Positions 2,651 through 26,040 of a DNA stretch of 64,000 nt are shown one piece after another. The notes under the pieces were generated by a model. It saw only the letters and a program-made list of their open reading frames with translations. It was not told the DNA's origin and searched no databases. The DNA comes from Spirochaetota bacterium (GTDB taxonomy: Bacteria; Spirochaetota; Brachyspiria; Brachyspirales; JACRPF01), in NCBI GenBank assembly GCA_016214035.1, contig JACRPF010000018.1, positions 186,001 through 250,000 on the forward strand. The letters are read 5' to 3'. Within the stretch, counting starts at the first letter, position 1, and each line of letters opens with the position of its first letter. Position numbers and translations under genes: made by a program.

Positions 2651-3484
2651 ATGAGAAACGGACTTGAAAACTACCACACACATACCGCACGCTGCAAACA
2701 CGCAAGCGGCAGCGTTGCTGATTACGCTAAAAACGCCGTAAAAAACGGGATCGCCGTTCTCGGCATATCCGACCATACCCCGCTCCCCGACGGACGCTGG
2801 CTGAACGTACGTATGCACATGGACGATCTTGCAGGCTATATCGCCGAAATACGGGCCGCGCAAAAGGCGCATCCCGGACTTATCATACTCACCGCGGTAG
2901 AATGCGAAGGATTTACCGAATACAATACGTTCTACCGCGATACGCTTCTGAACGAACACCATATGGATTATCTCATCGGCGGAAACCACTACTTCAGGGT
3001 CAACGGCACGATGAGCGGCGTCTATGACAATGCGGCAATGGACCTTCCGGCGCTCCACGCCTATGCCGATCACGTCATCGCCACCATCGCGAGCGGACTC
3101 TTTGCCTTCGTCGCGCATCCTGATCTGTTCGGGTATTCGTATTTGAACTGGGACGCGGAGACCGTTGCCATATCGCGCGACATCGCCTCGGCCGCGGCTT
3201 CGTACCGCATTCCGCTTGAGATTAACGGCTACGGTATGCGGAAACCTGCGGTAAAATCGGAGACGGGAATGCGCGCACCCTACCCGTTGGAAAAGTTCTG
3301 GGAGATCGCAGCGGCCTACGACATCAGCGTTGTAGCCAACTCCGACGCGCATCGCCCGGAAGACGTTGCCGCCGGTATTGCCGAAGGTTCCGCCCTGGCG
3401 TCGCGCTACGGTCTTCGCCTGGCCGATATTCGCGGGCATATCGGGAACGGCCGTCAGAATACTACCGTCAACCCCGCGCTGTAA
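2651..3484 (+). CDS. PHP-domain phosphatase, histidinol-phosphatase family
   Basis: The 277-residue protein belongs to the PHP family of metal-dependent phosphoesterases, closest in length and motif pattern to monofunctional histidinol phosphatase. The metal-binding signatures are visible in order: YHTHT (about residues 8-12), SDHTPLP (about 41-47), an ECEG segment near residue 85, GGNHYF, FVAHPDLF and the C-terminal NSDAHRP. Histidinol phosphatase would catalyse the penultimate step of histidine synthesis. A hisI gene lies at 38.95 kb but is not linked. No SD precedes the ATG, and a promoter ends seven bases upstream, so the mRNA may be leaderless. The 3' end overlaps the convergent barrel gene by 31 bases. 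Another phosphoester substrate is possible. Confidence 0.85.
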   Translation: MRNGLENYHTHTARCKHASGSVADYAKNAVKNGIAVLGISDHTPLPDGRWLNVRMHMDDLAGYIAEIRAAQKAHPGLIILTAVECEGFTEYNTFYRDTLLNEHHMDYLIGGNHYFRVNGTMSGVYDNAAMDLPALHAYADHVIATIASGLFAFVAHPDLFGYSYLNWDAETVAISRDIASAAASYRIPLEINGYGMRKPAVKSETGMRAPYPLEKFWEIAAAYDISVVANSDAHRPEDVAAGIAEGSALASRYGLRLADIRGHIGNGRQNTTVNPAL

Positions 3485-6012
3485 GTAAGTCCATAGTTCG
3501 CCTCGTAACGGGCGCCGGCATCAACACGATAACTCATCAAGCCGATATCGAAGATAACTCCGGCAGCGCCTGAAAACGACAACTCGCCGCGATCGGGGGT
3601 GGCCGGAAAGAATTCATACCATGTCCCGCCGCGGAGCTCGAGCAGATTGAACATCCGGTACATCACCCCGCCGCCGACGGTGACGTTATCCACATCGGAG
3701 TATCCGCCGTGCAGATACAGCGTTGACGCATTGTTCTCCATATCGAGGAAACGATAGTTAAGATCAAGACCGAACGCCATCGGCAGCAGTTCGCTCTGCT
3801 TATCGAACGTCACCGGCATGCCGAGGTTTTTGCCGTAGACGCCGAACGCGAAGGTGTTCTTCTTCTCATCGGAACTCAGATAAATGAGTTCGGTGATATA
3901 GAGCTGCCAGTCGAATTCATTCACCTTACGGAGATACGCCGCGCGGTTGCCCGAAAGTTCCTCGCCCCGGCTCAGCTCCATCTTTTTCGTTTCGCTCGCA
4001 TATTCCTCGCTTATCTTTGCGAGCATCTTTTCATTCGCACCCGCCTCGATGCGCGCAGCCGAATTCTGCACACGCGCTATCTCCGCTTTCCGGTTATACA
4101 CGGCGATGATATTGCCGTCCTGTTTGTCGGCCTTGTCCGACTCCTCTTTCTTGAGCACCGTGATAATGCGGTTCTTGGTCCGGAATATCTCCTGCAGGAG
4201 CGACAGAAACAGTTCCCGCTCGCGTTTCTTGTATTCATTGAAGACCGTTTTCACCTCGTTCTGATCAGCCACCTGGAGATAATCGAGGTCTTTCTTGAGC
4301 TTCGCCTTGGTAAGATCCTTCTGCAGCTCGTCCGTCGTCGTGTCAAGCGCCTTGTACTGCTCAAGCAGCCCCTGATTGAGCTCGGAATATTTGCGCTTCG
4401 TATCAAGCACAATCTGATTGCGGGCATCGAACAGGAGTATACGCTGCTCATACGTCTCTATTATCTTTTTATAGTATAATTCCTCTTTCTGCGTCATGCG
4501 GTATGCCCGTACCGGCACTTCCGCCTTGTCCTTGTCCCGGAGGAATTTCTCAAAGCGTTTGGCACGAGCCGCATTGTATTCTTCTATATTACCCGTAACC
4601 GCGCCCGCATCGTCTTTCGCCGCCGTCACCTCGGGTTTTTTCTGCGGTGGAATCTTAATCATCGTTCCGGGAAGCGGCTTGGCGATCTTCTTCACATCGA
4701 TCTTGTTATATGCGGTAATGATACCGGCAAGTGCGGTGTCGCCGTAATGCGCAAGCGCGATCGACGTCCAGGTATCATCCCGTTTCACCGTATACTGCTT
4801 GTCCGCCTCGATGACCTTTTTGCTTTTTTCCGCCACATCCTCTTTGATGTACTTCGAAATAGCTGTTCCTTCGTTGGCGATATACTCACTGTAAAGCGCG
4901 CTCACCGCCAGCGCATTATCAAAGAACACCGGCGCCTTTGCGGCATCCTTGAGCTTTTCGGTGTAATTGGAAATATCCTCGGCGTTCTGCTGCATATCGG
5001 CGCCGATGTTCTTCCGCAGATAGGCGAAATTATCGGCGATGGCGTTGCTCGCGATTACCGTAAGATCAAGGAGCTCCTTCTTCGCCACGGCGTTGAAATT
5101 CGAAACATCGGTATCCTTAAGCTCGATATCCGGGCTGTAGTATATTTCGAATATCTGCTTGCGAGATGCATGCACCCTGGCGATATCCGCTTTTTTCGCG
5201 GCGTACTCCTTTTCGGTCTTATCGATGAATTCCGTCCGGACGGTGCTGTATTCCGCCGTCTTCGCGGCAACGGCCTGCGGTGTAAGCCCCTTCGTGTTGG
5301 TCAGCGTGTTCATCCGTCCGGCGTACTCCCGGTCCGCGCCGCCGATGACATCCTTCTTCTCACGTTCAAGATCATCTTCGGTGATAAGCGATTTCGGCAT
5401 GCCGATATACGGCAGGGCGAATTTCGCCGTGATGTTCGCATCGGCGAAAAGCGAGAACGCATGGTAATCCGTTGTCAGCTGCGACTGAAAATAGTTGATA
5501 TTCACCGCCGCGTTGATGCACGAAAGAAAATCCTTGAGCATATTGCGGCCGCGGAGTTCTTTTTTGTTGTTCGTGACGATGGTGTAATCCTCAAGCGTAA
5601 GGCTTTTTACATCAAAAATGACCGGCACACCGACGTACAGCATGCTCGGGAACAGTGTCACCGATGTTTCGGCACGCTCATTGCGCTGTTCAAACGCGCC
5701 CAGGCCGAAATAGGAAAGATATGCCGCCATACGCATACCCGGAAGGATTGTGTTCTTGAGCGAGAGCATTACATTCTCTGCCGCAACGTCGTCCATACCG
5801 AAGACTGAATGGAAAAAGGTTATTTCAGTCTTATCCTTAAGCGCACCTGCCGCGCTGTAGGTGCGTGACAGCGGCGTCCTGATGTCGAGCAGGTCGTAGG
5901 ATTTACCAATCGAAAGCGACATCGGCGAATACTCACTGGCAAGAAAACTTGGATTCGCGAACGCCACGCCCGCGGCGGCAACGATACCGAGGAGAACAGT
6001 TTTCGCGTTCAT
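3454..6012 (-). CDS. PorV/UPF0164-like outer-membrane barrel with inserted LysM and coiled-coil region
   Basis: 852 residues from the ATG at 6012, which overlaps the upstream stop as TAATG behind a GGTGGTGA site. A signal peptide (MNAKTVLLGIVAAAGVAFA) is followed by an N-terminal segment typical of PorV/UPF0164/FadL-like barrels (NPSFLASEYSPMSLSIG...). In the middle there is a LysM-like peptidoglycan-binding module at about residues 405-455 (YTVKRDDTWTSIALAHYGD...), flanked by long charged coiled-coil stretches. The last 140 residues are alternating beta strands ending in an aromatic residue (TVVF), as expected for a BAM-assembled barrel. The protein would sit in the outer membrane with a large periplasmic arm touching the cell wall. 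It is coupled to a secreted CTD-bearing protein. The 3' end overlaps the PHP gene tail-to-tail. The function is inferred only. Confidence 0.75.
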   Translation of the reverse strand: MNAKTVLLGIVAAAGVAFANPSFLASEYSPMSLSIGKSYDLLDIRTPLSRTYSAAGALKDKTEITFFHSVFGMDDVAAENVMLSLKNTILPGMRMAAYLSYFGLGAFEQRNERAETSVTLFPSMLYVGVPVIFDVKSLTLEDYTIVTNNKKELRGRNMLKDFLSCINAAVNINYFQSQLTTDYHAFSLFADANITAKFALPYIGMPKSLITEDDLEREKKDVIGGADREYAGRMNTLTNTKGLTPQAVAAKTAEYSTVRTEFIDKTEKEYAAKKADIARVHASRKQIFEIYYSPDIELKDTDVSNFNAVAKKELLDLTVIASNAIADNFAYLRKNIGADMQQNAEDISNYTEKLKDAAKAPVFFDNALAVSALYSEYIANEGTAISKYIKEDVAEKSKKVIEADKQYTVKRDDTWTSIALAHYGDTALAGIITAYNKIDVKKIAKPLPGTMIKIPPQKKPEVTAAKDDAGAVTGNIEEYNAARAKRFEKFLRDKDKAEVPVRAYRMTQKEELYYKKIIETYEQRILLFDARNQIVLDTKRKYSELNQGLLEQYKALDTTTDELQKDLTKAKLKKDLDYLQVADQNEVKTVFNEYKKRERELFLSLLQEIFRTKNRIITVLKKEESDKADKQDGNIIAVYNRKAEIARVQNSAARIEAGANEKMLAKISEEYASETKKMELSRGEELSGNRAAYLRKVNEFDWQLYITELIYLSSDEKKNTFAFGVYGKNLGMPVTFDKQSELLPMAFGLDLNYRFLDMENNASTLYLHGGYSDVDNVTVGGGVMYRMFNLLELRGGTWYEFFPATPDRGELSFSGAAGVIFDIGLMSYRVDAGARYEANYGLTYSAGLTVVF

Positions 6013-9000
6013 TATTTCACCACCATGAGTTTTGTCTTCCGTAAATAATTTCCGGGGCCCTTGATTATCGCGATATACATCCCGGAACGCACTATCTGGC
6101 CGGCGATTGTCTTTCCGTCCCAATAGGCGACATACGACGGGAACGATATTTCCTGCACTTTCGCGCCGGCAATATCGTAGATATACGCCTTATACTGGGT
6201 GTAATCGCCGGATGCGCTGTCATCAAGATAGAGCGCAACCTTTTCCCCGCTGCCCGGGCGTAACAGTGTATTTCCCACCGCCGCTTTATTTGAATTGAAC
6301 TGCACGTCCGGAAAAATGGTGCAGAGTATCGTCTCCTGCGATGCGCCGTCATTCGAAATGGACGCGCCTGCCGGAGTGAAACCTGTCTGGCTGGTCTTCG
6401 GGAACCCGATGGTGAACTGCGCGCTGATCTGCGCTTTATCCGACGGCGTTATGACCGCATAGAGATACGTATTGTTTTTATCTATGGTAACCGTCTCCGC
6501 GAACGTCGAGATCTTTTTCCCGTTCGCGAACACGCCGTCCGAACCCGAGATGATGGTATCATTGGCATCATAGGTCCCCGGCATAAGTCCATTATCACGG
6601 TATACCGCGATTGAAAGATCGCTCTGGTTTATCAAATTCGTCGAGGCGATGGTAAAGACCAGATTATTGACCGTAAATGTTGCGTCCTGGTCAAGCGATC
6701 TGAGGTTTATCTTGAACGCCACCGACTTGCCTTTTACGCCCTGTTTGATGGTATTGGTAAGCATTGGTTCGACATCAGCAATGAGCGTATTATCCTCGAG
6801 CTTGATATTGGTTGTAGCATTCTGGAACAGGTTCGAATTCTGTACGGGCTCAACGGTATTGGTAGCGCTGTTCGGTCCGTTAACCTTCATATCCGCAATA
6901 CGGAACTTGTTGGTAGCGAACGTATCAAAGACAAGCGGTGTATAGGTAAATATGAGGCGTGTAGGATTGACGACACTCGCCGAAAGATTCGTAATGACAT
7001 TGGTGACGCGGATAAACGCATTCAGGTTGGATATATAGTTCGACAGAGACACGGGAATGCTGCCGGCAAGCGTATCGTCGGAACCGTTGGTATAAATATT
7101 GAAAAACCCGTAGAACGCCTGATTCGTCAGCAGGTTGGTTATCACGATATTGGTGATTGTCTGCGCATTGGTATATCCGGGACGCCGCACCTTGGCAAGC
7201 AGCACCTCAGTCTCCGCATTTTTTACCGCCTGCCCCGATGAACGATTGCGCACATCGTCAACAGAAACATCCCACGACGTGACATTGGTATCCGGTTCGA
7301 TGGTTATCTTCTGACTCTGATAATCGGCATTGGTGAGCGTGAGATAGCTGTTTGATGACACGTCAACGCCGTCCACCCAGCATTTCCACACAAGGTTCGG
7401 ATCGTTTCCGTCAATATTCGCCTTGAGCCGCCCCACAACGTCGAAGGTTATCGCCTCACGCGCGCCGTTCGCCGGCAGTATGCTGCTCGTATAGTCTACT
7501 ATGATAAGCCGCGACGAGGTCGCGTTCGTCAATCCCGCAATCGTGGTATTCGTCGACATATGATTACTGATGCCGTAACCCAAATATGCCGAATTGAAAT
7601 TCGAGAGCTTGCAGTTCTTGAACTCATCGGGCACCAGAATGGCTATCTTTTTTATAGAAGCACGCGGAACATCCTCATACGTGGCAAGCCGGAACGTTAC
7701 CGAATTAAGTTCGGTCACCTGCTGCATCACGCTCGGGGTCACCGCCGTGTATGCGAGCGCGGGGGATATCGTCGCATCAACCAATCCGCTGCCGGTACAC
7801 TTCTGCCAGCCGCAGGTGGAATAATTGCTGAGTTTCGACGACGGCATCGCATTGAACTGATCGGCGGTCACATATGCCGTCCATGCGTCGTTAAAGAACG
7901 TGGGATTCGTCGACCGTATGACCATCTCCACTTTCACATATTCCCAATCCGCCTGTGTCATGTTGGTAATCTGATTGCCAAGAAGCAGCCGTATCTCGTT
8001 CGAGCCTGCCGCATTCGTCCAGGAGTTCGTCATGATGGCACACTGTCCGTCATCGGGGAATGAATCGTTCGAATAGAAATAATTCGAAAGCGTTATCTCG
8101 CTCGCGGTGTTGCTGTAATGTGTTTTCACCCTGATGCCGACTAGGAGGTCGTTCGTCAGATCGAATGATGCCGGCTTGATGATTCGTATATAATTGACAC
8201 CGGCATTCGTTGTCTGGAGTATTACATTCGAGATGACCATCGCGACCGTTTGAAACGTACCGGCATTTGCAATGGCCGCAGGCTGGAAATATATCTGTGA
8301 AAGATCGGCTGCACTTCGTATGAGTAGATTGTCGAATGTACCGTACGCCCACTCATGGCCGAGATAACCGCCGAAACCGCGTTGACCATGCCCGATCATG
8401 ATTTGAAAATTACTGTTCCACGTAACCGGCCGCTTATGCACAAACATCCATTCATTCGGATATGCCGGACGTTTTCCGTAGGGATTCGGATTGACGAACA
8501 GATTAAGATCACTTCCATCATGAACGACACGAAACCCAATCGCATTGCTGTTCCAATAATTGGTATTCGTGAGCGGCGTCCACGTTGCCGCGTTCGTTAT
8601 GATATAATCCCAGTACATGGCATTCGAGACATTGCTCACCGCACCATCAGGCCGCCGTGCATCGAGAAAATCATCTTCAATACTCACTTCGGAACTTTCA
8701 AACACCTCGAAGCGGCGGAACCATGTTGATAAAAAGCCGGCATGTTCAGACCATTCGAAATAATTTGCGAATGATCCGCCTTCGTAAGCCCTGTTGAAAT
8801 TATAAGTCTTTTCAAGCGAAGCAGCGGGATTGTCGTAAAACATCGCCAGCCCGAGCGTCGCATGCTTGCGTGCATCCGACTTCGGCGTCGGAACATGGTC
8901 GGCAGCGCCTCCCGAGCCCGGCTTCGTCACAACATCGGATATATCAAGGAATGAAAGCTCCCGGACAACTTCCCATCCGAATGGATGATAAACAGTCGCG

Positions 9001-9368
9001 GAGTAACGATTCGTATGATACACCCATTTACCCTTCCAGCGTCCGTCACGGCTTGAACCGCCATCCGCCGGCGAAGGGCATCCCGATATCTCCAGTTTAC
9101 CGTTCGACATTATCTGCTGCGACATGTACATATTTGTATTCGTCAACAATGGCGCGCCGGCAAGTTCCGGAATTATGACCCCTTCACGTCCGTACCACAT
9201 GCCGTTGGTCCATCCGTTCGTACCGTTCGCCCAGTTCGTGTTAATCACGATGTTACTGAGCATCACGCTGCCATCGGCAACGCCGAAATCCTCACTCAGA
9301 TAATACGATGCCGGCGACAACGAAAAAGAAAGCACAATGGCTGCACAAATGATACATATTGCGCGCAT
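6012..9368 (-). CDS. Large secreted protein with FlgD-Ig/T9SS-like C-terminal domain
   Basis: The 1118-residue protein starts with a signal peptide (MRAICIICAAIVLSFSLSPA). The body is rich in Asn, Thr and aromatic residues and reads as beta-sandwich modules. An N-terminal region of about 350 residues suggests a lectin/LamG-like fold. The last 80 residues (KAYIYDIAGAKVQ..., AYWDGKTIAGQIVRSGMYI, ending KTKLMVVK) match the FlgD-Ig-like or type IX sorting-like C-terminal domain found on many cell-surface proteins. It has its own promoter at 9424-9452 and an SD (GGGAG). Its stop overlaps the start of the PorV-like gene (TAATG), so equal production of both is likely. A surface or extracellular location is inferred; no enzymatic motif was recognised. 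Confidence 0.75.
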   Translation of the reverse strand: MRAICIICAAIVLSFSLSPASYYLSEDFGVADGSVMLSNIVINTNWANGTNGWTNGMWYGREGVIIPELAGAPLLTNTNMYMSQQIMSNGKLEISGCPSPADGGSSRDGRWKGKWVYHTNRYSATVYHPFGWEVVRELSFLDISDVVTKPGSGGAADHVPTPKSDARKHATLGLAMFYDNPAASLEKTYNFNRAYEGGSFANYFEWSEHAGFLSTWFRRFEVFESSEVSIEDDFLDARRPDGAVSNVSNAMYWDYIITNAATWTPLTNTNYWNSNAIGFRVVHDGSDLNLFVNPNPYGKRPAYPNEWMFVHKRPVTWNSNFQIMIGHGQRGFGGYLGHEWAYGTFDNLLIRSAADLSQIYFQPAAIANAGTFQTVAMVISNVILQTTNAGVNYIRIIKPASFDLTNDLLVGIRVKTHYSNTASEITLSNYFYSNDSFPDDGQCAIMTNSWTNAAGSNEIRLLLGNQITNMTQADWEYVKVEMVIRSTNPTFFNDAWTAYVTADQFNAMPSSKLSNYSTCGWQKCTGSGLVDATISPALAYTAVTPSVMQQVTELNSVTFRLATYEDVPRASIKKIAILVPDEFKNCKLSNFNSAYLGYGISNHMSTNTTIAGLTNATSSRLIIVDYTSSILPANGAREAITFDVVGRLKANIDGNDPNLVWKCWVDGVDVSSNSYLTLTNADYQSQKITIEPDTNVTSWDVSVDDVRNRSSGQAVKNAETEVLLAKVRRPGYTNAQTITNIVITNLLTNQAFYGFFNIYTNGSDDTLAGSIPVSLSNYISNLNAFIRVTNVITNLSASVVNPTRLIFTYTPLVFDTFATNKFRIADMKVNGPNSATNTVEPVQNSNLFQNATTNIKLEDNTLIADVEPMLTNTIKQGVKGKSVAFKINLRSLDQDATFTVNNLVFTIASTNLINQSDLSIAVYRDNGLMPGTYDANDTIISGSDGVFANGKKISTFAETVTIDKNNTYLYAVITPSDKAQISAQFTIGFPKTSQTGFTPAGASISNDGASQETILCTIFPDVQFNSNKAAVGNTLLRPGSGEKVALYLDDSASGDYTQYKAYIYDIAGAKVQEISFPSYVAYWDGKTIAGQIVRSGMYIAIIKGPGNYLRKTKLMVVK

Positions 9369-9423
9369 ATGGGGATCTCCCTCACCTAGAATCAGCAGAT
9401 ATAGCTGCCGTTACTACGCGTTC

Positions 9424-9452
9424 AGTATAATACTTTAAAGTGGTTTTTGCAA
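9424..9452 (-). promoter_or_regulatory. Promoter of the secreted-protein/barrel operon
   Basis: On the minus strand, TTGCAA (9452-9447), a 17-base spacer and TATACT (9429-9424). The start site would fall near 9417, giving a leader of about 50 bases to the ATG at 9368. The 129-base gap after hypD therefore separates two transcription units. Confidence 0.6.
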
Positions 9453-11003: not shown

Positions 11004-12710
11004 TCACTGCCAATTTGTCGTACTGCCGCCATAGCTGTTACTTGCAACAACCCCGTAACTGTAGTTTGGAAAGTCAACATACTGGAAGCGGGTATTGGTG
11101 CCGTCAAGAGCCGAATAACAAGTTGATACGACACCGGTAGTTTTATTTGACTGAATTATGTTGTAAAAATCCGCTCCGGGCACAAGGTTCCAGTTTATAT
11201 AATTAGGCGAACCATACGTAGGATATACTGGTGAGGGGGCGTCGGGCCGTCCGAATGTGTTCGTATGCAGCGGTGACGAATACAAGCTCGGTCCCGTGGC
11301 GTTACTTGCAAGCACGATGAACGAATACGGCGTTTCCTTGCAGGTAAGTTTTGTCAGTGTCGTCGATGTGCTGCCTGTCACACTTGCATTGGAAACCGCT
11401 CCGGTGTTCGTATTGGTGACATATACATAATAAATAGACGCTGATTTCGAACTGCCCCATGACACTGTTATGGAATTACCGCTCACCGCCGTTGCCGTGA
11501 GATTGCTTACTGTCGTCGGCTGTGTAATGATATAATTGGAATTCGTCGCAACACCGTAACCGCCCACATAGAGACGCACACGATACCAATTCGTCAAGCC
11601 GGTATATGGAACTTCTGAAGAGATGTAAGGACTGGTACCCACGGTTATCATATTCGACCACGTCACCCCGACCAGTTTATCGATATAAAACGTATTCGCG
11701 TTTGATATCTGCGGCCAGGACACCTCTACGCTGGGGGAATTCTCCGGCGGCATTACGAATCTGTTGGTAACATACAGAATGCCGTAATACCGGGAATTGG
11801 TAGCCGATGTATTCCCCACTCCGTCGCGGGCATAGTACTGCAGCGTGGTGCATCTGTTGATAGCGACATCAACTCCGTTCGTATCGAAAGAATTCCATGT
11901 GCCGCCGTTCGTCGACCAGAATCCGCTATTCTCATTAACCGACAGGTATTCGGTGACCTGAGCACTCGCATAGACGTTATTACTCGCGCCAAGCGTCAAT
12001 GTGACAACCGGCGCGACTGTATCGATGGTATATACCACGCTGTTCGTCACCGAACAATTACTCGTCGCATTCCTGCTGAAATACAAAAGTGTTACGCTGC
12101 CGTTGATGGGCACCGTGGCACCCGCGGTAGTGAACTGATACCATGCGGCACCGCCGTTCGTCGACCAAACACCGAAATTCTCCGCAACGTACAGATGCAC
12201 CGTGAATGGTTGATTCGTAGTCATCGTATCGACATCCACAGCAACCGTATTAGTGATGAGATTTGTATTAGTTAATACATTGGTGTTTATAGTATAGATA
12301 ACGCTATTTGTTGCAGAGCAATTGCTATTCACATTTCTATTAAAGTATTGCAGTGTTACGCTGCCTGTGATAAAAACTGTGGTGCCCGCGGTGGTAAACT
12401 GATACCACATAGCCCCGCCGTTTGTCGACCAGTTCCCGAAGTTCTCCGCTGTATATAAATGCACGGTGAATGGCTGGTTCGTAGTTATGGAACCGATGTC
12501 GACACTCACCGTATTTGTAATAAGGCCCGATACAACATTGGATTCCGTCCGGTAACCCTGATAATACGATCCGGCCTGAGGGTCCACTTTGTTCGTCAGG
12601 AGCGTGCCGCCGCTTGGATTTTCGTACACTTTCTTTCTGAACAATGACGCATTGAGCGCCGCGATCATGACGATGACCGTAAGAGACAGTATATAGATGA
12701 CTTTCTTCAT
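11004..12710 (-). CDS. Membrane-anchored protein with 88-residue tandem repeats and fibronectin type III domains
   Basis: 568 residues. The N-terminal hydrophobic segment (MKKVIYILSLTVIVMIAALNAS) is an uncleaved anchor or a signal peptide. Residues of roughly 60-240 hold two close copies of an 88-residue unit (core NQPFTVHLY, NFGNWSTNGGA, WYQFTTAG) and a diverged third copy (SGFWSTNGGTWNSF). They resemble the small Ig-like chitobiase C-terminal modules. They are followed by three fibronectin type III-like domains (for example VSNLTATAVSGNSITVSWGSS). The chain ends abruptly at SYGGSTTNWQ, with no sorting domain. It lies 20 bases downstream of the CsgG-like gene and in the same direction. It is probably a surface or periplasmic adhesion or scaffold protein; no catalytic motif was seen. 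Confidence 0.72.
   Translation of the reverse strand: MKKVIYILSLTVIVMIAALNASLFRKKVYENPSGGTLLTNKVDPQAGSYYQGYRTESNVVSGLITNTVSVDIGSITTNQPFTVHLYTAENFGNWSTNGGAMWYQFTTAGTTVFITGSVTLQYFNRNVNSNCSATNSVIYTINTNVLTNTNLITNTVAVDVDTMTTNQPFTVHLYVAENFGVWSTNGGAAWYQFTTAGATVPINGSVTLLYFSRNATSNCSVTNSVVYTIDTVAPVVTLTLGASNNVYASAQVTEYLSVNENSGFWSTNGGTWNSFDTNGVDVAINRCTTLQYYARDGVGNTSATNSRYYGILYVTNRFVMPPENSPSVEVSWPQISNANTFYIDKLVGVTWSNMITVGTSPYISSEVPYTGLTNWYRVRLYVGGYGVATNSNYIITQPTTVSNLTATAVSGNSITVSWGSSKSASIYYVYVTNTNTGAVSNASVTGSTSTTLTKLTCKETPYSFIVLASNATGPSLYSSPLHTNTFGRPDAPSPVYPTYGSPNYINWNLVPGADFYNIIQSNKTTGVVSTCYSALDGTNTRFQYVDFPNYSYGVVASNSYGGSTTNWQ
12016..12543 (-). repeat. Two tandem 264-bp coding repeats
   Basis: Two consecutive DNA segments with a 264-base period encode nearly the same 88-residue module. 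For example, the sequence around 12460 (tgcacggtgaatgg) recurs at 12196 as tgcaccgtgaatgg. A third copy further along the gene is recognisable only at protein level, which suggests recent duplication of the first two. Confidence 0.7.
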
Positions 12711-12730: not shown

Positions 12731-13600
12731 TTAGAATTTATAGCACACGTTCACCGATGTGGGCGTCACCGATGCGGTGATCTGATCATTATATCCTTTC
12801 CAGAAAAAGAAATCGATGACACCCCAAGCGAGCATAGCGCCGCCCAGCACCAGCGCCGATTCTGATACAAGATACAGCATGTCCGCGAGGTCACCCTGCG
12901 AGACGATGAGCCCGTGCAGGTTCTCCGCGGACGAGCTCGTTGTGGCGGCATTATATTCGTTGAGCTTGAGCGCCGCGCCGTTATAATATGCGTCGCCGAC
13001 AAGCCACGTTGTAACGCCGCCGGCAAGCAGCACACCCGACGATATACCTTTTATCAGCATGCCGCTGAACGCCTCGTCGCGTTTCTGCGATATGTCGATG
13101 CGATCGGGCATTTTCAGCTGCGCGGCAATGGTGTCCACCAGCGCACGCACCGGCTGTTCCGCCTGCTCGATATTCTTTATCTTTTCCTTCGCCGTCACCG
13201 CAATCTCGCCGCTCTCGACGTTCACCACGTTCACCGTGAGAAGCGCCATGCTCCCCAGTTTCGACAGCGTACCGAACATCATATATTCCACATTAACGAG
13301 TTTCCCGATCTTCACGGCGCAGGCGCTCTCGGTGCAACCCGTCTGCTGAAAGGCCTGCTCCTTGAGCACGGTGTCCATGTTCGCCCGGTCGAGTACGTTG
13401 AACCTGCGGCTCTGCACGAGCTCGCTCCGGAACATCTCGCCGAGCGCCTCGGTATCTGCCGCGGCCGCGCCGCTCATCGCCGTGAACGAAAGAACGCCCA
13501 CGCGCTTTTTGCCTGCAGTTACCGATGCCGCGCCAAGGGGTATGGCGAGTGCCGAAAGCAGGCACAGCCCCGCCATCATCATTCTTTTTCCTGAAAACAT
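12731..13600 (-). CDS. CsgG-like (TolB-type) envelope protein
   Basis: 289 residues with a signal peptide (about residues 1-25). The domain at about residues 30-165 is typical of CsgG-family periplasmic/outer-membrane proteins: KRVGVLSFTAMSG, LVQSRRFNVLDRANMD, LKEQAFQQTGCTES, and VNVVNVESGEIAVTAKEK. Two hydrophobic stretches follow (about 180-205 and 240-262), then a short tail ending in an aromatic residue. Such proteins are common in spirochaetes and other diderms and may build pores or sense assembly state. It is the first gene of a minus-strand run (CsgG-like, repeat/Fn3 protein, LPP20-like, hypD). A GGAGG lies 13 bases before the chosen ATG, so a start a few codons later (MMMAGLC) is possible. 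Confidence 0.8.
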   Translation of the reverse strand: MFSGKRMMMAGLCLLSALAIPLGAASVTAGKKRVGVLSFTAMSGAAAADTEALGEMFRSELVQSRRFNVLDRANMDTVLKEQAFQQTGCTESACAVKIGKLVNVEYMMFGTLSKLGSMALLTVNVVNVESGEIAVTAKEKIKNIEQAEQPVRALVDTIAAQLKMPDRIDISQKRDEAFSGMLIKGISSGVLLAGGVTTWLVGDAYYNGAALKLNEYNAATTSSSAENLHGLIVSQGDLADMLYLVSESALVLGGAMLAWGVIDFFFWKGYNDQITASVTPTSVNVCYKF

Positions 13601-13747: not shown

Positions 13748-15700
13748 TTATTCCGTAACACGCACCCCGGCGGCAATCTGTTTTCCCCGTGCGATGATCT
13801 GAGCAGCTGCAAATGCTTCATTCGTATCATGGTTCTCGTAAAAAAGCTGATATTTCGTGCCGTTGGCGGAAACCGCAGATTCATTCAGATATTCAAGTTG
13901 AGCATCAATACGATTCGTCCTGCCCGTCATCATCCTCGGCTTGTCGTACGGCGCGATCCGGTTGCTCAGTTTTGTATAATACGTCACATACTCAGCGGGA
14001 GCCGTATCATCCGGGACCTGATATCGTGACAGCCCCAGCATACGCAGCCGGTCCATGAACATGCACGAGGCCACATTGAGCTTCCACGCATCATGCTCTT
14101 TCACATATCCCAAACGGACTTCAAGCATCGTAGCGGGAGCCGTTGGGAAAAGCGTTCCGGGGCAATTCAGCGAGAACGCGGACGTCGTGAACGACAGGCT
14201 TTCCCCCTCGGTCTGTATCGATGCACCCTGAAAATGCTGCGGCCTGAATTTTTCATTCGCTAAAAACTCATTCCAATCGTTCAGTGTTCCTCCGTAATTC
14301 ATCCGGATATGATCCGCAGACTCCCGCATATCAAGCTCCGTATACATATCCAGCGCCGCCATGCCGGTATCCTTCATCAATGATGCGCATCCGTCGGGCA
14401 GAGGGAGCGTCAGTGTCGCCATATAGTTCCGCGCGTACGGCAGCCACCATGCCCGGAAAATCCAGACCCTGCCGTAACTGTCGGTAATCGTTTTCTCCCG
14501 TTCCGGCTGACCATAGGACAGAATGCGTACTTTATCCCCGCCGACGGACCGGGTAAAGGGAACAGCCTTCAGGATATAATCCATCTGCAGCTGCCCGTTT
14601 GTGATAAAATCCGCAAAAGAGCTATTGCTCGACCGTCGTATCCGTGATACGATATACGGCATCTGTATGCCGAACCGGATATAGGCGTTTGAACCCACAT
14701 CGATATTCTTGGAATAGACAGCAGCATTCGTATGCCATTTACCGGCTGCATCCTCACGGACGAGTGACGGATTGAACAGCGAAACCCGGTCGTAGCGTAT
14801 CTTCCCGGCGCCGTCACCATCGGGAAATAAAGTACCGGGTGATTTAACCTTAATAGCCTGCAGCGAACGGACACAGTAGTCATGCACATTGGAAACGATA
14901 AGACGGTACAGCGATATGCTGTCGATCGGCAATGCCGCTGAATAATCGCAATAGCCAATCTGCTTGCGCTCGGTATCCGGCATGACATAGTCAAACCGCC
15001 GGCGGTATTCAGCAACAGAAAGCTTCACCGATTCCACCTCGGTTATCGGCAGCGCGAAATTCAGATTTTCATTCCGGGATTTCATCACGACAATGCCGAT
15101 CACGTTCCCCGATGCGTCCACCAGCGGTCCGCCGCTGTTGCCCGGCGACGCCGGTGCTGAATACCGCAGCCATTTCCATTCGCCGCGTTCATCTTCCGGT
15201 GTAACCGAAGTGAGCGTCCCGTCGCGGATAACGACTCCTTCCCCGAGTGCGTTTCCGACGGTAAAAACGTCCATATTCATATCAGCCGTGCCGTTCGTAC
15301 CGAGCCAGCTCCTGTTGCCGACGGCGGCGGTGAATTGTATGAAATCACGTTGTTTTGAATATCGCAGTATCTCGCCGAATGGGACCACCGTTCCGGACGA
15401 GTCACGCAGAAGCAAAACCGTATTCCCTTCCATACCCGCTTCGAATACGTGGGCGGCAGTAATAAATGTATTCGAACCGACCGCAAATGCTGTGCCGATG
15501 GATTGATATTTATCGGTACGTTCACGGTACGGTAAAAGTTCGAACGGCAGCGGACGTTCGTATCGCAGCGGATCGTCCACCGGTTTCGGCAGAACAACCT
15601 CATATACACAACGGACAACAGTATCAGCTGTTTTTTTATCAAGCGTAGCGGCCGGCAGCATCGCGGTCAGAAGCACAAACACCTTCAATCCATGAAACAT
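13748..15700 (-). CDS. Secreted trypsin-like (S1/HtrA-type) serine protease with C-terminal extension
   Basis: 650 residues from the ATG at 15700, which has a GGGAGG site. An in-frame start 18 bases earlier lacks one. A signal peptide (MFHGLKVFVLLTAMLPAATL) precedes a chymotrypsin-fold domain at about residues 50-235 with all three catalytic residues: His near 83 in TAAHVF, Asp near 119 in QRDFIQF, and Ser near 190 in SPGNSGGPL. The remaining 400 residues are of unknown type and appear mostly beta-stranded. No PDZ signature was recognised. The protease is presumably periplasmic or secreted. It is monocistronic, with a promoter at 15742-15769. The overall assignment is solid; substrate unknown. 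Confidence 0.85.
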   Translation of the reverse strand: MFHGLKVFVLLTAMLPAATLDKKTADTVVRCVYEVVLPKPVDDPLRYERPLPFELLPYRERTDKYQSIGTAFAVGSNTFITAAHVFEAGMEGNTVLLLRDSSGTVVPFGEILRYSKQRDFIQFTAAVGNRSWLGTNGTADMNMDVFTVGNALGEGVVIRDGTLTSVTPEDERGEWKWLRYSAPASPGNSGGPLVDASGNVIGIVVMKSRNENLNFALPITEVESVKLSVAEYRRRFDYVMPDTERKQIGYCDYSAALPIDSISLYRLIVSNVHDYCVRSLQAIKVKSPGTLFPDGDGAGKIRYDRVSLFNPSLVREDAAGKWHTNAAVYSKNIDVGSNAYIRFGIQMPYIVSRIRRSSNSSFADFITNGQLQMDYILKAVPFTRSVGGDKVRILSYGQPEREKTITDSYGRVWIFRAWWLPYARNYMATLTLPLPDGCASLMKDTGMAALDMYTELDMRESADHIRMNYGGTLNDWNEFLANEKFRPQHFQGASIQTEGESLSFTTSAFSLNCPGTLFPTAPATMLEVRLGYVKEHDAWKLNVASCMFMDRLRMLGLSRYQVPDDTAPAEYVTYYTKLSNRIAPYDKPRMMTGRTNRIDAQLEYLNESAVSANGTKYQLFYENHDTNEAFAAAQIIARGKQIAAGVRVTE

Positions 15701-15741
15701 CCCGTCCTCCCATTGCACTGAGCGTGTGAGTAACTAATGAG

Positions 15742-22231: not shown

Positions 22232-24373
22232 TCAGCTCACCATCTGTTTCGCCTTTCCTTTCTTCCAGTCCGCGTCGAACATCCGCGGTACTGACACACC
22301 GGCGAACGGTTTCTTAGCCCGGTCTATTTTCTTTACCTTATCAATAACCAGTCCAGCGAGCGCGTCGAAATATCCCCACACGGCGACACCGCGCGGATAG
22401 AAGCAGAGGTTATTGCCGTTGAACGTCTCAAAGAAACTGCGCGCTTCCTGCGAGTTCGTCGTTGTCTGCCAATCCCAATACCGGTCGGCGAGATACCGCA
22501 GGTCCACACCGCGGTAAAACGCGGCGATATCGCGAAGCATGTTCATGGATATCCAGCCGGGATTCCGCGATGCTCCGGCGAGACCTTCCATTGCTTTCAC
22601 GTCGGTCATCATCGAATTAAGGAAATCACTGTGCACGCATCCGTATTCCCGCAGGCAGCGTTTCGCGGCAACAACGAGATCCTTTTTGATCTTCACATCG
22701 TCAAGCCCGAGATCATGCCCCACCATATCGAGCGGAGCCTGTCCGTTAACGGTATAGATATGCGCGGCGTCCCATCCGGGTATCTCGGCGAGGTCGTATT
22801 TCTCGCCCGTCCACGCGTTGACGACACCTTCGGCGCTCTTGTCGAGAAGCGTCACGAAGTGATCCTTCCTCCATCCTTTCTTTTCGATGATGACGGTTAT
22901 CTTTGCGGCGATCTTTTTGTACCTGAGCGCGAGCTTCGTCTCTCCGAGCATGGTGAGCATCTCCGCGCCGGTGCGGTATGACGCCACGGTCTTCACGGCG
23001 AGATAGATCTGCTCTTTGCCGAACTGAACCGCAGGCGATGCGTCATCGATGGTGTTCGCAACGCCTTTGTCGGGTATGCCGTTGCCCGTGGTGTCGCACG
23101 CCTCAATGAACGCGAGATATTTTTTGAGGATATCCTTCTTGCGTTTTACAATAGCCTTATCCCCCGTACGTTTCATGTATGCATACAGCAGTATTATATA
23201 ATTCGTCGTCTCCTCAACTTCCATCTCGTGATGATAGATCTGACCGTTCACCGCGCCATTTCGCCCCATGTCATGCGACAGGAACAGCGTACCTTTTCCG
23301 CGCTCTCCGAGACATTTTGTTCCGTCTTTCGAGAAATCCGGCCAGTTCTCGAGTTCAATACCGAGCAGTTCCGGCCACACCGCCAGATAGAACGGCGCCT
23401 GCGTGAACTCCACGTCAACCGTTGAATGATAATAGCAGCTCCCCTCCCACACCGTGAACCAGTCACGCCCGTCCTCCACTACCCACCACGAATCGAGAAG
23501 CCACGCATGCAGCGTCTGGGCGAAAAGGTTATTGACGCTTTTTGCGCAGTTATTGTTCATGACAATGCCGTCGACGTTCGCCGCATTGTCGAACAGCGCC
23601 GACGGATTCTTCCGCGCCCATGTTGTTACCGCATCAAGGTCTTTGAATGATTCGATGTATTTGAACGGCCGCGGCGTATGTTTTATCTCGAGCAGCGGTG
23701 CGCTGTGCGTACACCACGACAACGCGAGCGTATCCTCCGCCCCGCCGAGTTTTACTTTTTTCACAAAACGTTTACCGGCGCATACACCGTCCGTGACCAC
23801 GATGCGGTCGCGCTGCTTCACCGGCGTGCGTTCGATCTTCCGTTCCTTATGTCCTTCGCTCTCGGGAACATTGACGACGGTCTTCACGCTGTCGAACACC
23901 ATATCGATACTGTCCGCACCGCTTTCTTCGACGGTGATAGCGTCACCTGCAAATTCGATGAATACTTCGACATCGTCAACCTTCACATCGTTCTTCATCC
24001 AGCGGAACTGACCTTTGAGCTTCGAGGCGGAAAGTCGCAGTCCCATCACCGGCGTTGTGGAGAATGCATTATCACGCGGACGGAACGGAACGGCGATGGA
24101 AAGCTCCAGCTTCACCGTACTCGCCGGATCGATGCCCATGACCGACATCGTGCATGGGGTAAGCCGCTGGTCGTAGAAGAAAAAATTGCCGCCGTCCGCA
24201 CAGAGCGGCAGCGTGTATTCTTTTCCGGCGATGATGACGCCCGCCTTCAGATTGAGCACCGGGGCGGACGTAAATTCATCGAACCGGATGATGTTGCACC
24301 GTTTGTTCGCCGGATCGATGATGATGCCGTGACGTGAACCGGGGACTGAAAAACCGTTTGCTATCAATTGCAT
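22232..24373 (-). CDS. GH52-like glycoside hydrolase, probable beta-xylosidase-type enzyme
   Basis: 713 residues, about the length of GH52 beta-xylosidases, with an AGGAGA site. The first 250 residues are beta-rich and the rest is an (alpha/alpha)6 barrel. From memory of GH52 sequences, several blocks line up in order: WEGSCYYHSTVDVE (candidate nucleophile Glu), GTLFLSHDMG, NTIDDASPAV followed by IYLAVKTVASY (candidate acid Asp), and NLCFYPRGVAVWG. Overall similarity is low, so this could be a separate family in the GH52/GH116/DUF4965 superfamily. No signal peptide, so it would act in the cytoplasm on imported oligosaccharides. It follows the GH10 xylanase gene by 21 bases, which supports a xylo-oligosaccharide role. 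Confidence 0.65.
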   Translation of the reverse strand: MQLIANGFSVPGSRHGIIIDPANKRCNIIRFDEFTSAPVLNLKAGVIIAGKEYTLPLCADGGNFFFYDQRLTPCTMSVMGIDPASTVKLELSIAVPFRPRDNAFSTTPVMGLRLSASKLKGQFRWMKNDVKVDDVEVFIEFAGDAITVEESGADSIDMVFDSVKTVVNVPESEGHKERKIERTPVKQRDRIVVTDGVCAGKRFVKKVKLGGAEDTLALSWCTHSAPLLEIKHTPRPFKYIESFKDLDAVTTWARKNPSALFDNAANVDGIVMNNNCAKSVNNLFAQTLHAWLLDSWWVVEDGRDWFTVWEGSCYYHSTVDVEFTQAPFYLAVWPELLGIELENWPDFSKDGTKCLGERGKGTLFLSHDMGRNGAVNGQIYHHEMEVEETTNYIILLYAYMKRTGDKAIVKRKKDILKKYLAFIEACDTTGNGIPDKGVANTIDDASPAVQFGKEQIYLAVKTVASYRTGAEMLTMLGETKLALRYKKIAAKITVIIEKKGWRKDHFVTLLDKSAEGVVNAWTGEKYDLAEIPGWDAAHIYTVNGQAPLDMVGHDLGLDDVKIKKDLVVAAKRCLREYGCVHSDFLNSMMTDVKAMEGLAGASRNPGWISMNMLRDIAAFYRGVDLRYLADRYWDWQTTTNSQEARSFFETFNGNNLCFYPRGVAVWGYFDALAGLVIDKVKKIDRAKKPFAGVSVPRMFDADWKKGKAKQMVS

Positions 24374-24394
24374 GAGATGTCTCCTGAAATGTAA

Positions 24395-26026
24395 TTATTT
24401 CCCATTTTTTGCGATGTAGCCGTCTGGATCGATAACCGCCCAGAACGCCTCTTTGGGCCGTCCTTTACGGTCGAACAGCATCGGATGATTGATCCTTCCC
24501 TTCACGGGAAAATTATTGAGCCATGAATCGCCGTCCGTCACGCCCCAGACCGCCACACGCGTGATGACATCCTTATGCTTTTTAAATACCTGAAAGAGCT
24601 TTGCATACGTCAACGCCTGCGTCCTGAGAAGCTCCTCCGGCGCGCCGTCGCGGTACGGATTATCCTGCTTGTCGCCCCATTTGAACAGACTCACATCAAG
24701 CTCGCTGATGGAAACCTTCACGCCGGAGGCAGCTATCGCCTCGATGGCATACTCCACGTCATTCGGGTCTATCCACGCGTCCACATGCATCTGCATTCCC
24801 ACCTCGTCGATGCGTACACCGGCGGCTTTTATCCTGCGTACAAAATCAGCCGACGTCTTCGCTTTTGAAAAATCAAGATACTTCCCTTCCTGCGCATAAT
24901 CATTGTAGACCAGCCGCACGCCCGGCATAAACTCGTCGGCATACTGGAACGCCTTCACGATAAAGTCCTCACCGATGATCTTGTACCATTGCGAGTCCGT
25001 ACGGAAACCGCCGGTCTTATGGTCAGCCGCCGCTTCATTGACGACATCCCAGCTCACCGCGGCTCCGGCGAAATGCTGTGAAAGTGTTTTGATATGGTCG
25101 CGCATGCGTTCGAGCAGCGCATCGCGGCCTATCGTTGCGCCATTATCATCGGTGAATATCCATTTCGGCGCCTGGCTGTGCCATACGAATGTGTGCCCGT
25201 GAACGGCAAGACCGTTCTTCTTCGCATAGGCAACGGTCGTATCGGCTTCATCAAACCGATATACGTCTTTTTTCGGATGAGTTGCATCCCATTTCATGGA
25301 ATTACCCGGCGTGACGCCGGCGAAGTGACGGCGAATCAGTGCATCCCACTTAGCCAGGACCGCGGGGTTTACGCCGCCCGCAGTGATGGGAAAATATGAC
25401 GCATACGTATCCTTGAGCGACGGCAATGTTGTGTGATCGACGAGTGCTGCAGGCATCACGGCTGTCACCTCCGCGGTTTTCGCTTCTTCAGCGCTTAGTT
25501 GTTTTTCAAGATCAGCTATCACCATGTTCGCAATATCGAACTCCTGCCGCTGTGCTCCCGCGTGCAACGTGAAATTGATACTTCCCGACGGATGCGATTC
25601 CTTCGCTGTGTAAACGAACACGAACCGCTTCCAGTCTTTCCCGGCGACAATCGGCGACTGTACGAGCGCGTCGTAGGGGGAAGCGCTTTTCTGCAGCTTC
25701 ATAAGAAGCTCGGTCTTGTCCCCTTCGGCATCGACAGCCCGGGCGCTGAACGATATAACGATGACATCATCCGCTTTAATGCCCTCCTGAATCGAAGCGT
25801 TCATCGCGATGCCCCACGGCTTATCGCTTTTCGCCGCCACTTTCACGCGCATCGCCCGGGGGAATGCATCGTCAGTAAGAGCAATTATACCTGAAGTCAC
25901 CGCACCGCTGCCGGTAAGTGCCGCTTCGGATGCAGGCGAAATCAAAGAGACCGCTTTAACAGCAGTACAGAATCCGGATGCAATGGACAACAATGCAACC
26001 AGCGCAGACATCGCAAATACTCTCAT
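24395..26026 (-). CDS. Secreted GH10 endo-beta-1,4-xylanase with N-terminal CBM-like domain
   Basis: 543 residues from the ATG at 26026, nine bases after GAGGAGG. An in-frame GTG at 26044 starts inside this ribosome site and is unlikely. A signal peptide (MRVFAMSALVALLSIASGFCTA) is followed by a beta-sandwich of about 135 residues resembling carbohydrate-binding modules, then the GH10 barrel (about 200-540). The catalytic pair is visible: acid/base Glu near 331 in WDVVNEA and nucleophile Glu near 441 in ISELDV. GHTFVWHSQAP and GMQMHVD are also typical. The gene lies 14 bases after the regulator's stop and before the GH52-like gene. It would cleave xylan outside the cytoplasm. The assignment is firm. 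Confidence 0.93.
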   Translation of the reverse strand: MRVFAMSALVALLSIASGFCTAVKAVSLISPASEAALTGSGAVTSGIIALTDDAFPRAMRVKVAAKSDKPWGIAMNASIQEGIKADDVIVISFSARAVDAEGDKTELLMKLQKSASPYDALVQSPIVAGKDWKRFVFVYTAKESHPSGSINFTLHAGAQRQEFDIANMVIADLEKQLSAEEAKTAEVTAVMPAALVDHTTLPSLKDTYASYFPITAGGVNPAVLAKWDALIRRHFAGVTPGNSMKWDATHPKKDVYRFDEADTTVAYAKKNGLAVHGHTFVWHSQAPKWIFTDDNGATIGRDALLERMRDHIKTLSQHFAGAAVSWDVVNEAAADHKTGGFRTDSQWYKIIGEDFIVKAFQYADEFMPGVRLVYNDYAQEGKYLDFSKAKTSADFVRRIKAAGVRIDEVGMQMHVDAWIDPNDVEYAIEAIAASGVKVSISELDVSLFKWGDKQDNPYRDGAPEELLRTQALTYAKLFQVFKKHKDVITRVAVWGVTDGDSWLNNFPVKGRINHPMLFDRKGRPKEAFWAVIDPDGYIAKNGK

Positions 26027-26040
26027 ACCGGCAATCCTCC

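What the first reader, a model, noticed from the sequence alone, without database searches (positions are those of the whole stretch)
3454..9452. Translationally coupled PorV-LysM barrel and CTD-bearing secreted protein
A large secreted protein with a FlgD-Ig/T9SS-like C-terminal domain is encoded immediately before, and overlapping by TAATG, a barrel that looks PorV/UPF0164-like but is split by a LysM module and coiled coils. In type IX secretion, PorV shuttles CTD proteins to the surface. A dedicated one-substrate, one-shuttle pair anchored to peptidoglycan would be a distinct arrangement, and no other T9SS gene is visible here. Family similarities are from memory.
Basis: partly seen in the sequence, partly recalled or inferred. 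Interest (0 to 1): 0.6.

Follow-up and report, generated by a model that had tools for sequence, protein, structure and literature searches.

The report
Spirochaete export carrier with cell-wall arm
Two overlapping spirochaete genes appear to encode a large surface protein and its own outer-membrane carrier, whose barrel is interrupted by a coiled, cell-wall-binding arm, and the same genome also encodes a distant relative of the giant SprA channel of type 9 secretion, a system that the papers read here confine to Bacteroidota and their close relatives.

Summary
P0002 (1118 aa, window 9368-6012, minus strand) ends in a T9SS-type C-terminal domain. It overlaps by TAATG the gene for P0001 (852 aa, 6012-3454). 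P0001 is a 14-strand barrel (6+8 strands) split by a 496-residue coiled-coil/LysM arm, and it is homologous over both halves to PorV/PorQ carriers. The arm sits in the loop equivalent to F. johnsoniae PorV residues 193-199, which is periplasmic and contacts SkpA. In 149 Spirochaetota genomes the LysM barrel occurs at eight loci in four genomes. The cargo's conserved C-terminus occurs at exactly those eight loci, always directly upstream. PorU protease, GldL and GldM were not detected, without a positive control. Cargo/carrier gene pairs and wall anchoring are known in Bacteroidota (type B cargo, SprF/PorP, PorE). New here are the fusion of anchor into carrier, the PorV-type carrier and the phylum. 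Verdict: new variant of a known kind. Function is inferred, not shown.

The parts
6012..9368 (-). Cargo protein P0002, 1118 aa: signal peptide, beta-rich passenger, Ig-like/sandwich modules, C-terminal sorting domain
   Evidence: ORF; homologous cargo next to every LysM barrel locus
6015..7274 (-). Conserved 420-residue C-terminal part of the cargo (residues 699-1118), the stretch shared by all paired cargos
   Evidence: Alignment A6; full-length matches only at the eight paired loci in 149 genomes
6306..6785 (-). Beta-sandwich of the cargo (residues 862-1021), fold like the N-terminal sandwich of Bacteroidota sialidases
   Evidence: AlphaFold model plus VIA-align Z 12.2, 2.9 A over 140 residues
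6015..6269 (-). T9SS-type C-terminal sorting domain of the cargo (residues 1034-1118)
   Evidence: TIGR04183 matches in 27 of 31 relatives; PorU C-terminus Z 9.1; CTD profile finds PorZ, PorU and NucA CTDs in PDB
6010..6014 (-). TAATG: stop of the cargo gene overlaps the start of the barrel gene
   Evidence: Sequence
6018..6024 (-). GGTGGTG, possible ribosome-binding site of the barrel gene inside the cargo's 3' end
   Evidence: Sequence; function inferred
3454..6012 (-). Split PorV-type barrel with coiled-coil/LysM arm, P0001, 852 aa
   Evidence: ORF; AlphaFold; profile comparison
5392..5955 (-). N-terminal barrel half (residues 20-207, six strands)
   Evidence: hhalign against PorV-family profile, probability 96.8, E 2.4e-10
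3904..5391 (-). Inserted arm (residues 208-703): two coiled-coil stretches around a LysM module, at the loop equivalent to F. johnsoniae PorV 193-199
   Evidence: AlphaFold helices 212-711; alignments place the insertion; loop identity from PMC10994853
4645..4812 (-). LysM module (residues 401-456)
   Evidence: PF01476 18.3 bits in P0001, over cut-off in P0004 and P0007; profile hits Kbp LysM 7pvc E 8.7e-8
3457..3903 (-). C-terminal barrel half (residues 704-852, eight strands)
   Evidence: hhalign against PorV-family profile E 3.3e-15

Best explanation
P0002 and P0001 are a cognate cargo/carrier pair of a type 9-related export route. Shown here by sequence and fold: the cargo has a signal peptide and a T9SS-type CTD; the barrel is a PorV-type barrel with a coiled-coil/LysM insertion; cargo and barrel always occur together and adjacent; and the same genome encodes a SprA-like giant protein. 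Inferred: the cargo crosses the inner membrane by Sec, enters the SprA-like channel, and its CTD binds the extracellular loops of its own carrier docked at the channel's side opening. The carrier then leaves with the cargo bound and keeps it on the surface. The long arm hangs into the periplasm from the loop that in F. johnsoniae PorV touches the periplasmic subunit SkpA, and its LysM module binds peptidoglycan, so carrier and cargo become a fixed surface anchor. In effect the shuttle (PorP/SprF role) and the wall anchor (PorE role) of Bacteroidota are fused in one protein. Confidence by step: PorV-type barrel 0.93; T9SS-type CTD 0.92; functional pair 0.85; SprA-dependent export 0.7; static wall anchoring through LysM 0.6.
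For: Both barrel halves match PorV-family profiles. The profile of ordinary spirochaete PorV proteins hits PorV of the solved SprA complex, 6h3i_F, at E 3.7e-19. Structural matches spanning both halves: FadL Z 12.8, OmpG Z 13.1. The insertion maps to PorV residues about 192-199, the periplasmic loop that contacts SkpA (PMC10994853). Two other PorV-family proteins over the NCBIfam cut-off (P0020, P0021) carry a long coiled-coil insert at the same place. CTD. One-to-one co-occurrence and adjacency at 8 of 8 loci; paralogous pairs moved as units, with identities own1/G001_1 66 and 67%, own2/G001_2 56 and 64% for barrel and cargo. SprA-like protein P0015, TIGR04189 E 5.7e-21, and relatives in 65 of 149 Spirochaetota genomes. 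Three Brachyspira-like genomes without a SprA hit have only 0-1 PorV and CTD hits. LysM is kept in all six complete family members.
Against: All similarity to named T9SS models is below their curated cut-offs for P0001, P0002 and P0015. The N-terminal Asn-Pro motif invariant in the spirochaete PorV set is absent from the LysM barrels. PorU protease, GldL and GldM were not found, though without a positive control. A profile of the spirochaete SprA-like proteins did not find solved SprA. LysM domains can bind ligands other than peptidoglycan; the closest solved one is Kbp. No expression, localisation or secretion data exist.
Confidence: 0.6

Rival explanations
1. The arm is a built-in periplasmic chaperone or docking device rather than an anchor: its long helices take the place of SkpA/SprE, hold the very large unfolded cargo (1118-3597 aa) and seat the carrier on the SprA-like channel; LysM only positions it.
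For: The insertion is at the PorV loop that contacts SkpA, a Skp-like coiled-coil protein. P0020 and P0021 carry a coiled-coil arm at the same site without LysM. The arm has invariant positions far from the LysM. Complete paired cargos are large.
Against: LysM is retained and is more conserved than the coiled coils (12.5% invariant positions against 5-7%), and two members have two LysM repeats.
Confidence: 0.25
2. The arm connects the loaded carrier to a moving periplasmic structure, as SprF is linked to the GldK track, so that the cargo is a mobile adhesin.
For: In F. johnsoniae, carriers of mobile adhesins are linked to a moving track (PMC12635249). The cargos look like adhesin stalks: Ig-like and sandwich modules, repeats.
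Against: No GldL or GldM found. P0001 has a single cysteine at 165 in the barrel and none in the arm, so the known disulfide linkage is not possible there. A wall-binding LysM argues for a fixed complex.
Confidence: 0.07
3. The barrel is a wall-tethered outer-membrane protein (porin or stabiliser) co-transcribed with the cargo but not its carrier; the cargo is carried by another PorV-family protein of the genome.
For: Eleven other PorV/PorQ proteins exist in the genome, and 30 of 40 CTD genes have no carrier next to them, so carriers can act in trans. The Asn-Pro motif is missing.
Against: Strict one-to-one co-occurrence with one cargo family across four genomes and eight loci; most ordinary PorV-family genes in these genomes show the same cargo-then-carrier order (22 of 31).
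Confidence: 0.1

Closest known systems
Type B CTD cargo with PorP/SprF-like shuttle and PorE (F. johnsoniae, P. gingivalis)
   Same: Cargo gene directly followed by its shuttle gene; shuttle proposed to hold the cargo at the surface; complex proposed to be fixed to peptidoglycan (PMC9143113, PMC12618676).
   Different: The carrier here is PorV/PorQ-type, not PorP/SprF (no TIGR03519 match); the CTD is closer to type A (TIGR04183); the wall-binding module is a LysM inside the carrier's loop instead of a separate PorE with an OmpA-like domain; the phylum is Spirochaetota.
PorV, the type A carrier of the T9SS translocon (PDB 6h3i, 8gl6-8gln)
   Same: FadL-like 14-strand barrel; homologous over both halves through the spirochaete PorV family; the insertion falls exactly on PorV's periplasmic loop 193-199.
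   Different: 496-residue arm; dedicated gene neighbour; no Asn-Pro motif; one PorV serves the type A cargos in F. johnsoniae.
PorV/PorQ family proteins of Spirochaetota (NF033709)
   Same: Cargo-then-carrier gene order with a CTD gene directly upstream in 22 of 31 cases in three genomes.
   Different: Mostly without an arm; some carry a coiled-coil insert at the same loop (P0020, P0021), or OmpA plus TPR at the C-terminus (P0011, P0014).
SprA/Sov translocon (TIGR04189)
   Same: The genome has a 2205-aa protein with a 73.5-bit match over the most conserved part.
   Different: Far below the 200-bit equivalog cut-off; other T9SS parts not recognised.

Membership tests
PorV/PorQ family (NF033709) | FadL-like barrel of 14 strands | tested here: met
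   AlphaFold gives 6 + 8 strands and structural matches to FadL and OmpG spanning both halves; model confidence moderate
PorV/PorQ family (NF033709) | Profile score over the curated cut-off | tested here: not met
   P0001 gives no NF033709 hit; best LysM-barrel relative P0004 26.2 bits against 90
PorV/PorQ family (NF033709) | Common descent shown by profile-profile comparison | tested here: met
   N half E 2.4e-10, C half E 3.3e-15, together E 3.6e-22
PorV/PorQ family (NF033709) | N-terminal Asn-Pro hatch motif | tested here: not met
   Invariant NP in the spirochaete PorV set, absent in all LysM barrels
PorV/PorQ family (NF033709) | Acts as carrier of CTD proteins | not testable with these tools
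   Needs deletion and pull-down
T9SS cargo (CTD) | C-terminal sorting domain (TIGR04183 / PF18962) | tested here: met
   27 of 31 paired CTDs match TIGR04183, best 6.5e-8; P0002 itself 18 bits, cut-off 23; fold match to PorU C-terminus Z 9.1
Type IX secretion system | SprA/Sov translocon homologue in the genome | tested here: met
   P0015, 2205 aa, TIGR04189 E 5.7e-21 but 73.5 bits against an equivalog cut-off of 200; relatives in 65 of 149 Spirochaetota
Type IX secretion system | GldL/GldM motor | tested here: inconclusive
   No hit to TIGR03517 in ten genomes or TIGR03513 over cut-off in eight, no positive control in the search
Type IX secretion system | PorU sortase | tested here: inconclusive
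   All NF033707 matches lie in its C-terminal part (profile positions 951-1095, the CTD region), none in the protease part; no positive control
Type IX secretion system | GldK/GldN ring, SprE, SkpA, PorG | not tested
UPF0164 (PF03687) | Pfam match | tested here: not met
   No hit for P0001; none in the genome, though no control rang
LysM domain (PF01476) | Pfam match over gathering score | tested here: met
   Met in relatives P0004 (23.0) and P0007 (23.4) at cut-off 20.9; P0001 itself 18.3
Type B / PorP-SprF shuttle | TIGR03519 match of the carrier | tested here: not met
   No hit for P0001

The most novel reading that the evidence does not exclude
Many Spirochaetota run an unrecognised type 9-related export route (SprA-like channel, CTD cargos, one carrier gene per cargo gene in many cases). 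In one lineage the carrier has swallowed the wall anchor: a LysM/coiled-coil arm inserted in the loop facing the periplasmic face of the channel turns a shuttle into a permanent, wall-fixed surface anchor for one giant adhesin-like protein, possibly without a GldLM motor.
Probability: 0.4. Interest if true: 0.75.

Novelty: new variant of a known kind. Interest (0 to 1): 0.62.

Why it matters
The papers read here describe the T9SS as exclusive to Bacteroidota or to the Bacteroidota/Chlorobi/Fibrobacteres group (PMC4793230, PMC12618676, PMC11205867, PMC12421860). SprA-like proteins in 65 of 149 Spirochaetota genomes, with CTD cargos and paired PorV carriers, would extend it to another phylum. 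The LysM-armed carrier makes an open question testable: whether a carrier stays with its cargo as an anchor, and what the periplasmic loop of PorV does. Natural arms of different kinds at that loop (LysM, coiled coil) are ready-made variants for such tests.

Tried and rejected
UPF0164 membership: no match. Direct sequence search of P0001, P0002 and SprA-like proteins against PDB: only the LysM, or nothing useful. Foldseek of the whole barrel model: dominated by coiled coils, no hit below 0.001; VIA-align on the same candidates was informative. PorV itself did not appear in that list, which says nothing either way. PorU: only the CTD part matched. GldL/GldM: no hit. One genome-contig scan found only the relative G040, Spirochaetes bacterium UWPOB_SPIRO2. 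The cargo's N-terminal passenger could not be modelled reliably (pLDDT mostly under 60); Pfam finds nothing in P0002 or the two larger cargos. Pure chance for the pairing was rejected. I considered a FlgD-like Ig domain instead of a T9SS CTD: FlgD is a structural cousin and matches too, but the C-terminal position and the better PorU/PorZ matches favour the CTD. No paper on a LysM-bearing PorV was found; the library lacks most subscription papers and preprints.
Full report
WHAT IS THERE. On the minus strand two genes follow each other. P0002 (9368-6012, 1118 aa) has a signal peptide (MRAICIICAAIVLSFSLSPAS) and a Thr/Ser/Asn-rich, beta-rich body. P0001 (6012-3454, 852 aa; the 889-aa TTG ORF is a false extension) has a signal peptide and barrel-type sequence at both ends around a 496-residue helical insert. 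Stop and start share one base (TAATG, 6014-6010), with GGTGGTG just before. The gene upstream is HypD, on the same strand after a 129-base gap; the gene downstream (PHP domain, 2651-3484) runs towards the pair. The genome is a 5.2 Mb assembly in 22 contigs, 98.2% complete with 4.65% contamination. Its phylum is Spirochaetota: the relative G040, 'same phylum', has a contig of the same length (64,246 bases) as the record of Spirochaetes bacterium UWPOB_SPIRO2, which carries the same LysM barrel. Its order also holds a genus of 2-3.4 Mb, partly complete genomes that looks like Brachyspira (inference).

THE BARREL. Pfam and NCBIfam find only LysM-type matches in P0001, below cut-off. A search of 61 relatives found five more full-length homologues, two in the same genome. 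AlphaFold on the six-sequence alignment (pLDDT 67, pTM 0.56) gives six strands before the insert (77-198), helices and LysM at 212-711, and eight strands after it (721-851). VIA-align matches that span both halves are 14- to 16-strand barrels such as OmpG (Z 13.1) and FadL (Z 12.8). Weak hits in other spirochaetes led to proteins that NCBIfam calls PorV/PorQ family, several well over cut-off; their profile finds PorV of the solved SprA complex at E 3.7e-19. hhalign of the LysM barrels against that profile gives E 2.4e-10 for the N half, 3.3e-15 for the C half and 3.6e-22 with the insert left out.

WHERE THE ARM SITS. In the alignments the insert lies between '...KFALPYIGMP' and 'EKKNTFAFGVYGKNLG', which corresponds to F. 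johnsoniae PorV residues about 192-199 (EIAYSDFN). The cryo-EM paper names PorV 193-199 as the periplasmic loop that contacts the C-terminus of SkpA in the extended translocon (PMC10994853). This agrees with six strands (an even number) before the insert if the N-terminus is periplasmic. Two other spirochaete proteins over the PorV-family cut-off, P0020 and P0021, carry a coiled coil of about 620 residues at the same point (NF033709 positions 1-161 and 163-324), with a CTD sequence just upstream. P0011 and P0014 are PorV-family barrels fused at the C-terminus to OmpA and TPR domains. Attaching periplasmic modules to PorV-type barrels thus seems to have happened several times.

THE CARGO. Taken alone P0002 matches no Pfam family. 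Its last 85 residues align with the ends of 30 other proteins encoded just upstream of PorV-type genes: 27 of 31 match the T9SS type A sorting domain TIGR04183, P0002 itself at E 0.0021, below cut-off. The profile of these ends finds the CTDs of PorZ, PorU, NucA (from the SprA/PorV complex) and gingipains in the PDB, and also the related FlgD domain. In the AlphaFold model the end of P0002 matches the C-terminus of PorU (Z 9.1, 2.1 A, 84 residues, 20% identity), residues 862-1021 match the N-terminal sandwich of Bacteroidota sialidases (Z 12.2), and 356-527 resemble Gram-positive adhesin domains (Z about 7.9, weak). The cargos at the LysM loci form one family of 1118 to 3597 aa; the longer ones repeat a module. 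An adhesin-like or structural surface role is an inference.

IS THE PAIR REAL? In 149 Spirochaetota genomes the LysM barrel was found in four (G000 three, G001 two, G040 one, G070 two, the last on short contigs), plus a terminal fragment in G040. The conserved 421-residue C-terminus of the cargo was found complete, or cut by a contig end, at the same eight loci and nowhere else; other hits were internal repeats or the CTD alone. All eight are adjacent in the order cargo, barrel. The closest barrels belong to the closest cargos (66 and 67%, 56 and 64%; distance correlation 0.88), so the pairs were inherited as units. Ordinary PorV-family genes show the same order in 7 of 11, 10 of 13 and 5 of 7 cases in three genomes, against about 0.1-0.2% expected. 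However, about 30 of the 40 CTD genes of this genome have no carrier gene next to them.

OTHER T9SS PARTS. The genome encodes a 2205-aa protein (P0015, G000:C22:126881-133498) with a TIGR04189 (SprA) match of E 5.7e-21, 73.5 bits, below the 200-bit cut-off. A profile of five such proteins finds relatives, mostly single ORFs of 1800-2300 aa, in 65 of 149 Spirochaetota genomes, and in only one of the Brachyspira-like family. The presumed Brachyspira genomes tested have 0-1 CTD and PorV hits. GldM and GldL were not found and PorU matched only in its CTD; no genome known to have them was in those searches, so this is inconclusive.

HOW IT MOST LIKELY WORKS. From the F. johnsoniae work (PMC10994853): PorV docks at SprA's side opening, the cargo CTD binds PorV's extracellular loops inside the pore, and energy input pulls carrier plus cargo away. 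I propose the same for P0002 and P0001 (inference), with the carrier remaining as the anchor, as shown or proposed for SprF/SprB and PorP/PG1035 (PMC9143113, PMC12635249). The LysM in the periplasmic arm would fix the complex to the wall, the role proposed for PorE in static type B complexes (PMC9143113, PMC12618676). Main rival: the arm is a Skp-like chaperone or docking device, since it replaces the SkpA-contacting loop, its second coiled coil has invariant positions (P0001 572-577, 594-606) that wall binding does not explain, and P0020/P0021 have arms without LysM. A disulfide link to a moving track, as for SprF, is unlikely: the arm has no cysteine.

KNOWN OR NEW. Cargo/shuttle gene pairs and wall-anchored shuttles are known for type B cargos; PorV barrels and CTDs are known; NCBIfam already has a PorV/PorQ subfamily model. 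Not found in the papers available: a PorV-type carrier with its own wall-binding arm, or a T9SS-related route in Spirochaetota. Published statements restrict T9SS to Bacteroidota or the Bacteroidota/Chlorobi/Fibrobacteres group. The library is partial, so absence of a paper is weak evidence. I rate it a new variant of a known kind.

LIMITS. No experiment supports any step. The AlphaFold models rest on 6 and 10 sequences and have moderate to low confidence. All curated cut-offs are missed by P0001, P0002 and P0015 individually; the case rests on profiles, gene order and co-occurrence.

Noticed in passing
G000:C22:126881-133498 (L065:8882-15499, +): 2205-aa SprA-like protein in the window's own genome; relatives in 65 of 149 Spirochaetota genomes, although T9SS is described as confined to Bacteroidota and close relatives.
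   Followed up: partly
G041 and G053 genomes: 56 and 74 PorV/PorQ-family matches in genomes of about 3 Mb, many directly behind a CTD gene: a very large expansion of cargo/carrier pairs.
   Followed up: partly
L106:1863-4655 (P0020) and L105:387-3212 (P0021): PorV-family barrels with a coiled coil of about 620 residues inserted at the same loop as the LysM arm, without LysM.
   Followed up: partly
L005:814-2328 (P0011) and L013:952-2487 (P0014): PorV-family barrels fused to an OmpA-type domain and TPR, not next to a CTD gene: perhaps general wall-anchored carriers.
   Followed up: no
P0006 (L007:1498-4176) and P0007 (L003:157-2790): Two LysM-like repeats in tandem in the arm instead of one.
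   Followed up: no
P0001 residues 571-577 and 594-606 (window 4195-4302): Conserved positions in the second coiled coil (KLKKDLD, YKKRERELFLSLL) far from the LysM; no explanation.
   Followed up: no
G053:C354:2967-8687: The SprA-like gene of this genome has one internal TAA; sequencing error or real break unknown.
   Followed up: no
window 13748-15718: Trypsin/HtrA-like protease domain followed by about 430 residues without a known domain; nearby CsgG/LpoB-like (12731-13600) and fibronectin type III (11004-12710) proteins.
   Followed up: no
window 22232-26044 and 61579-63999: Glycoside hydrolases: GH10 with a possible carbohydrate-binding domain, a GtaA/GH52-like protein and a GH42-like protein.
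   Followed up: no
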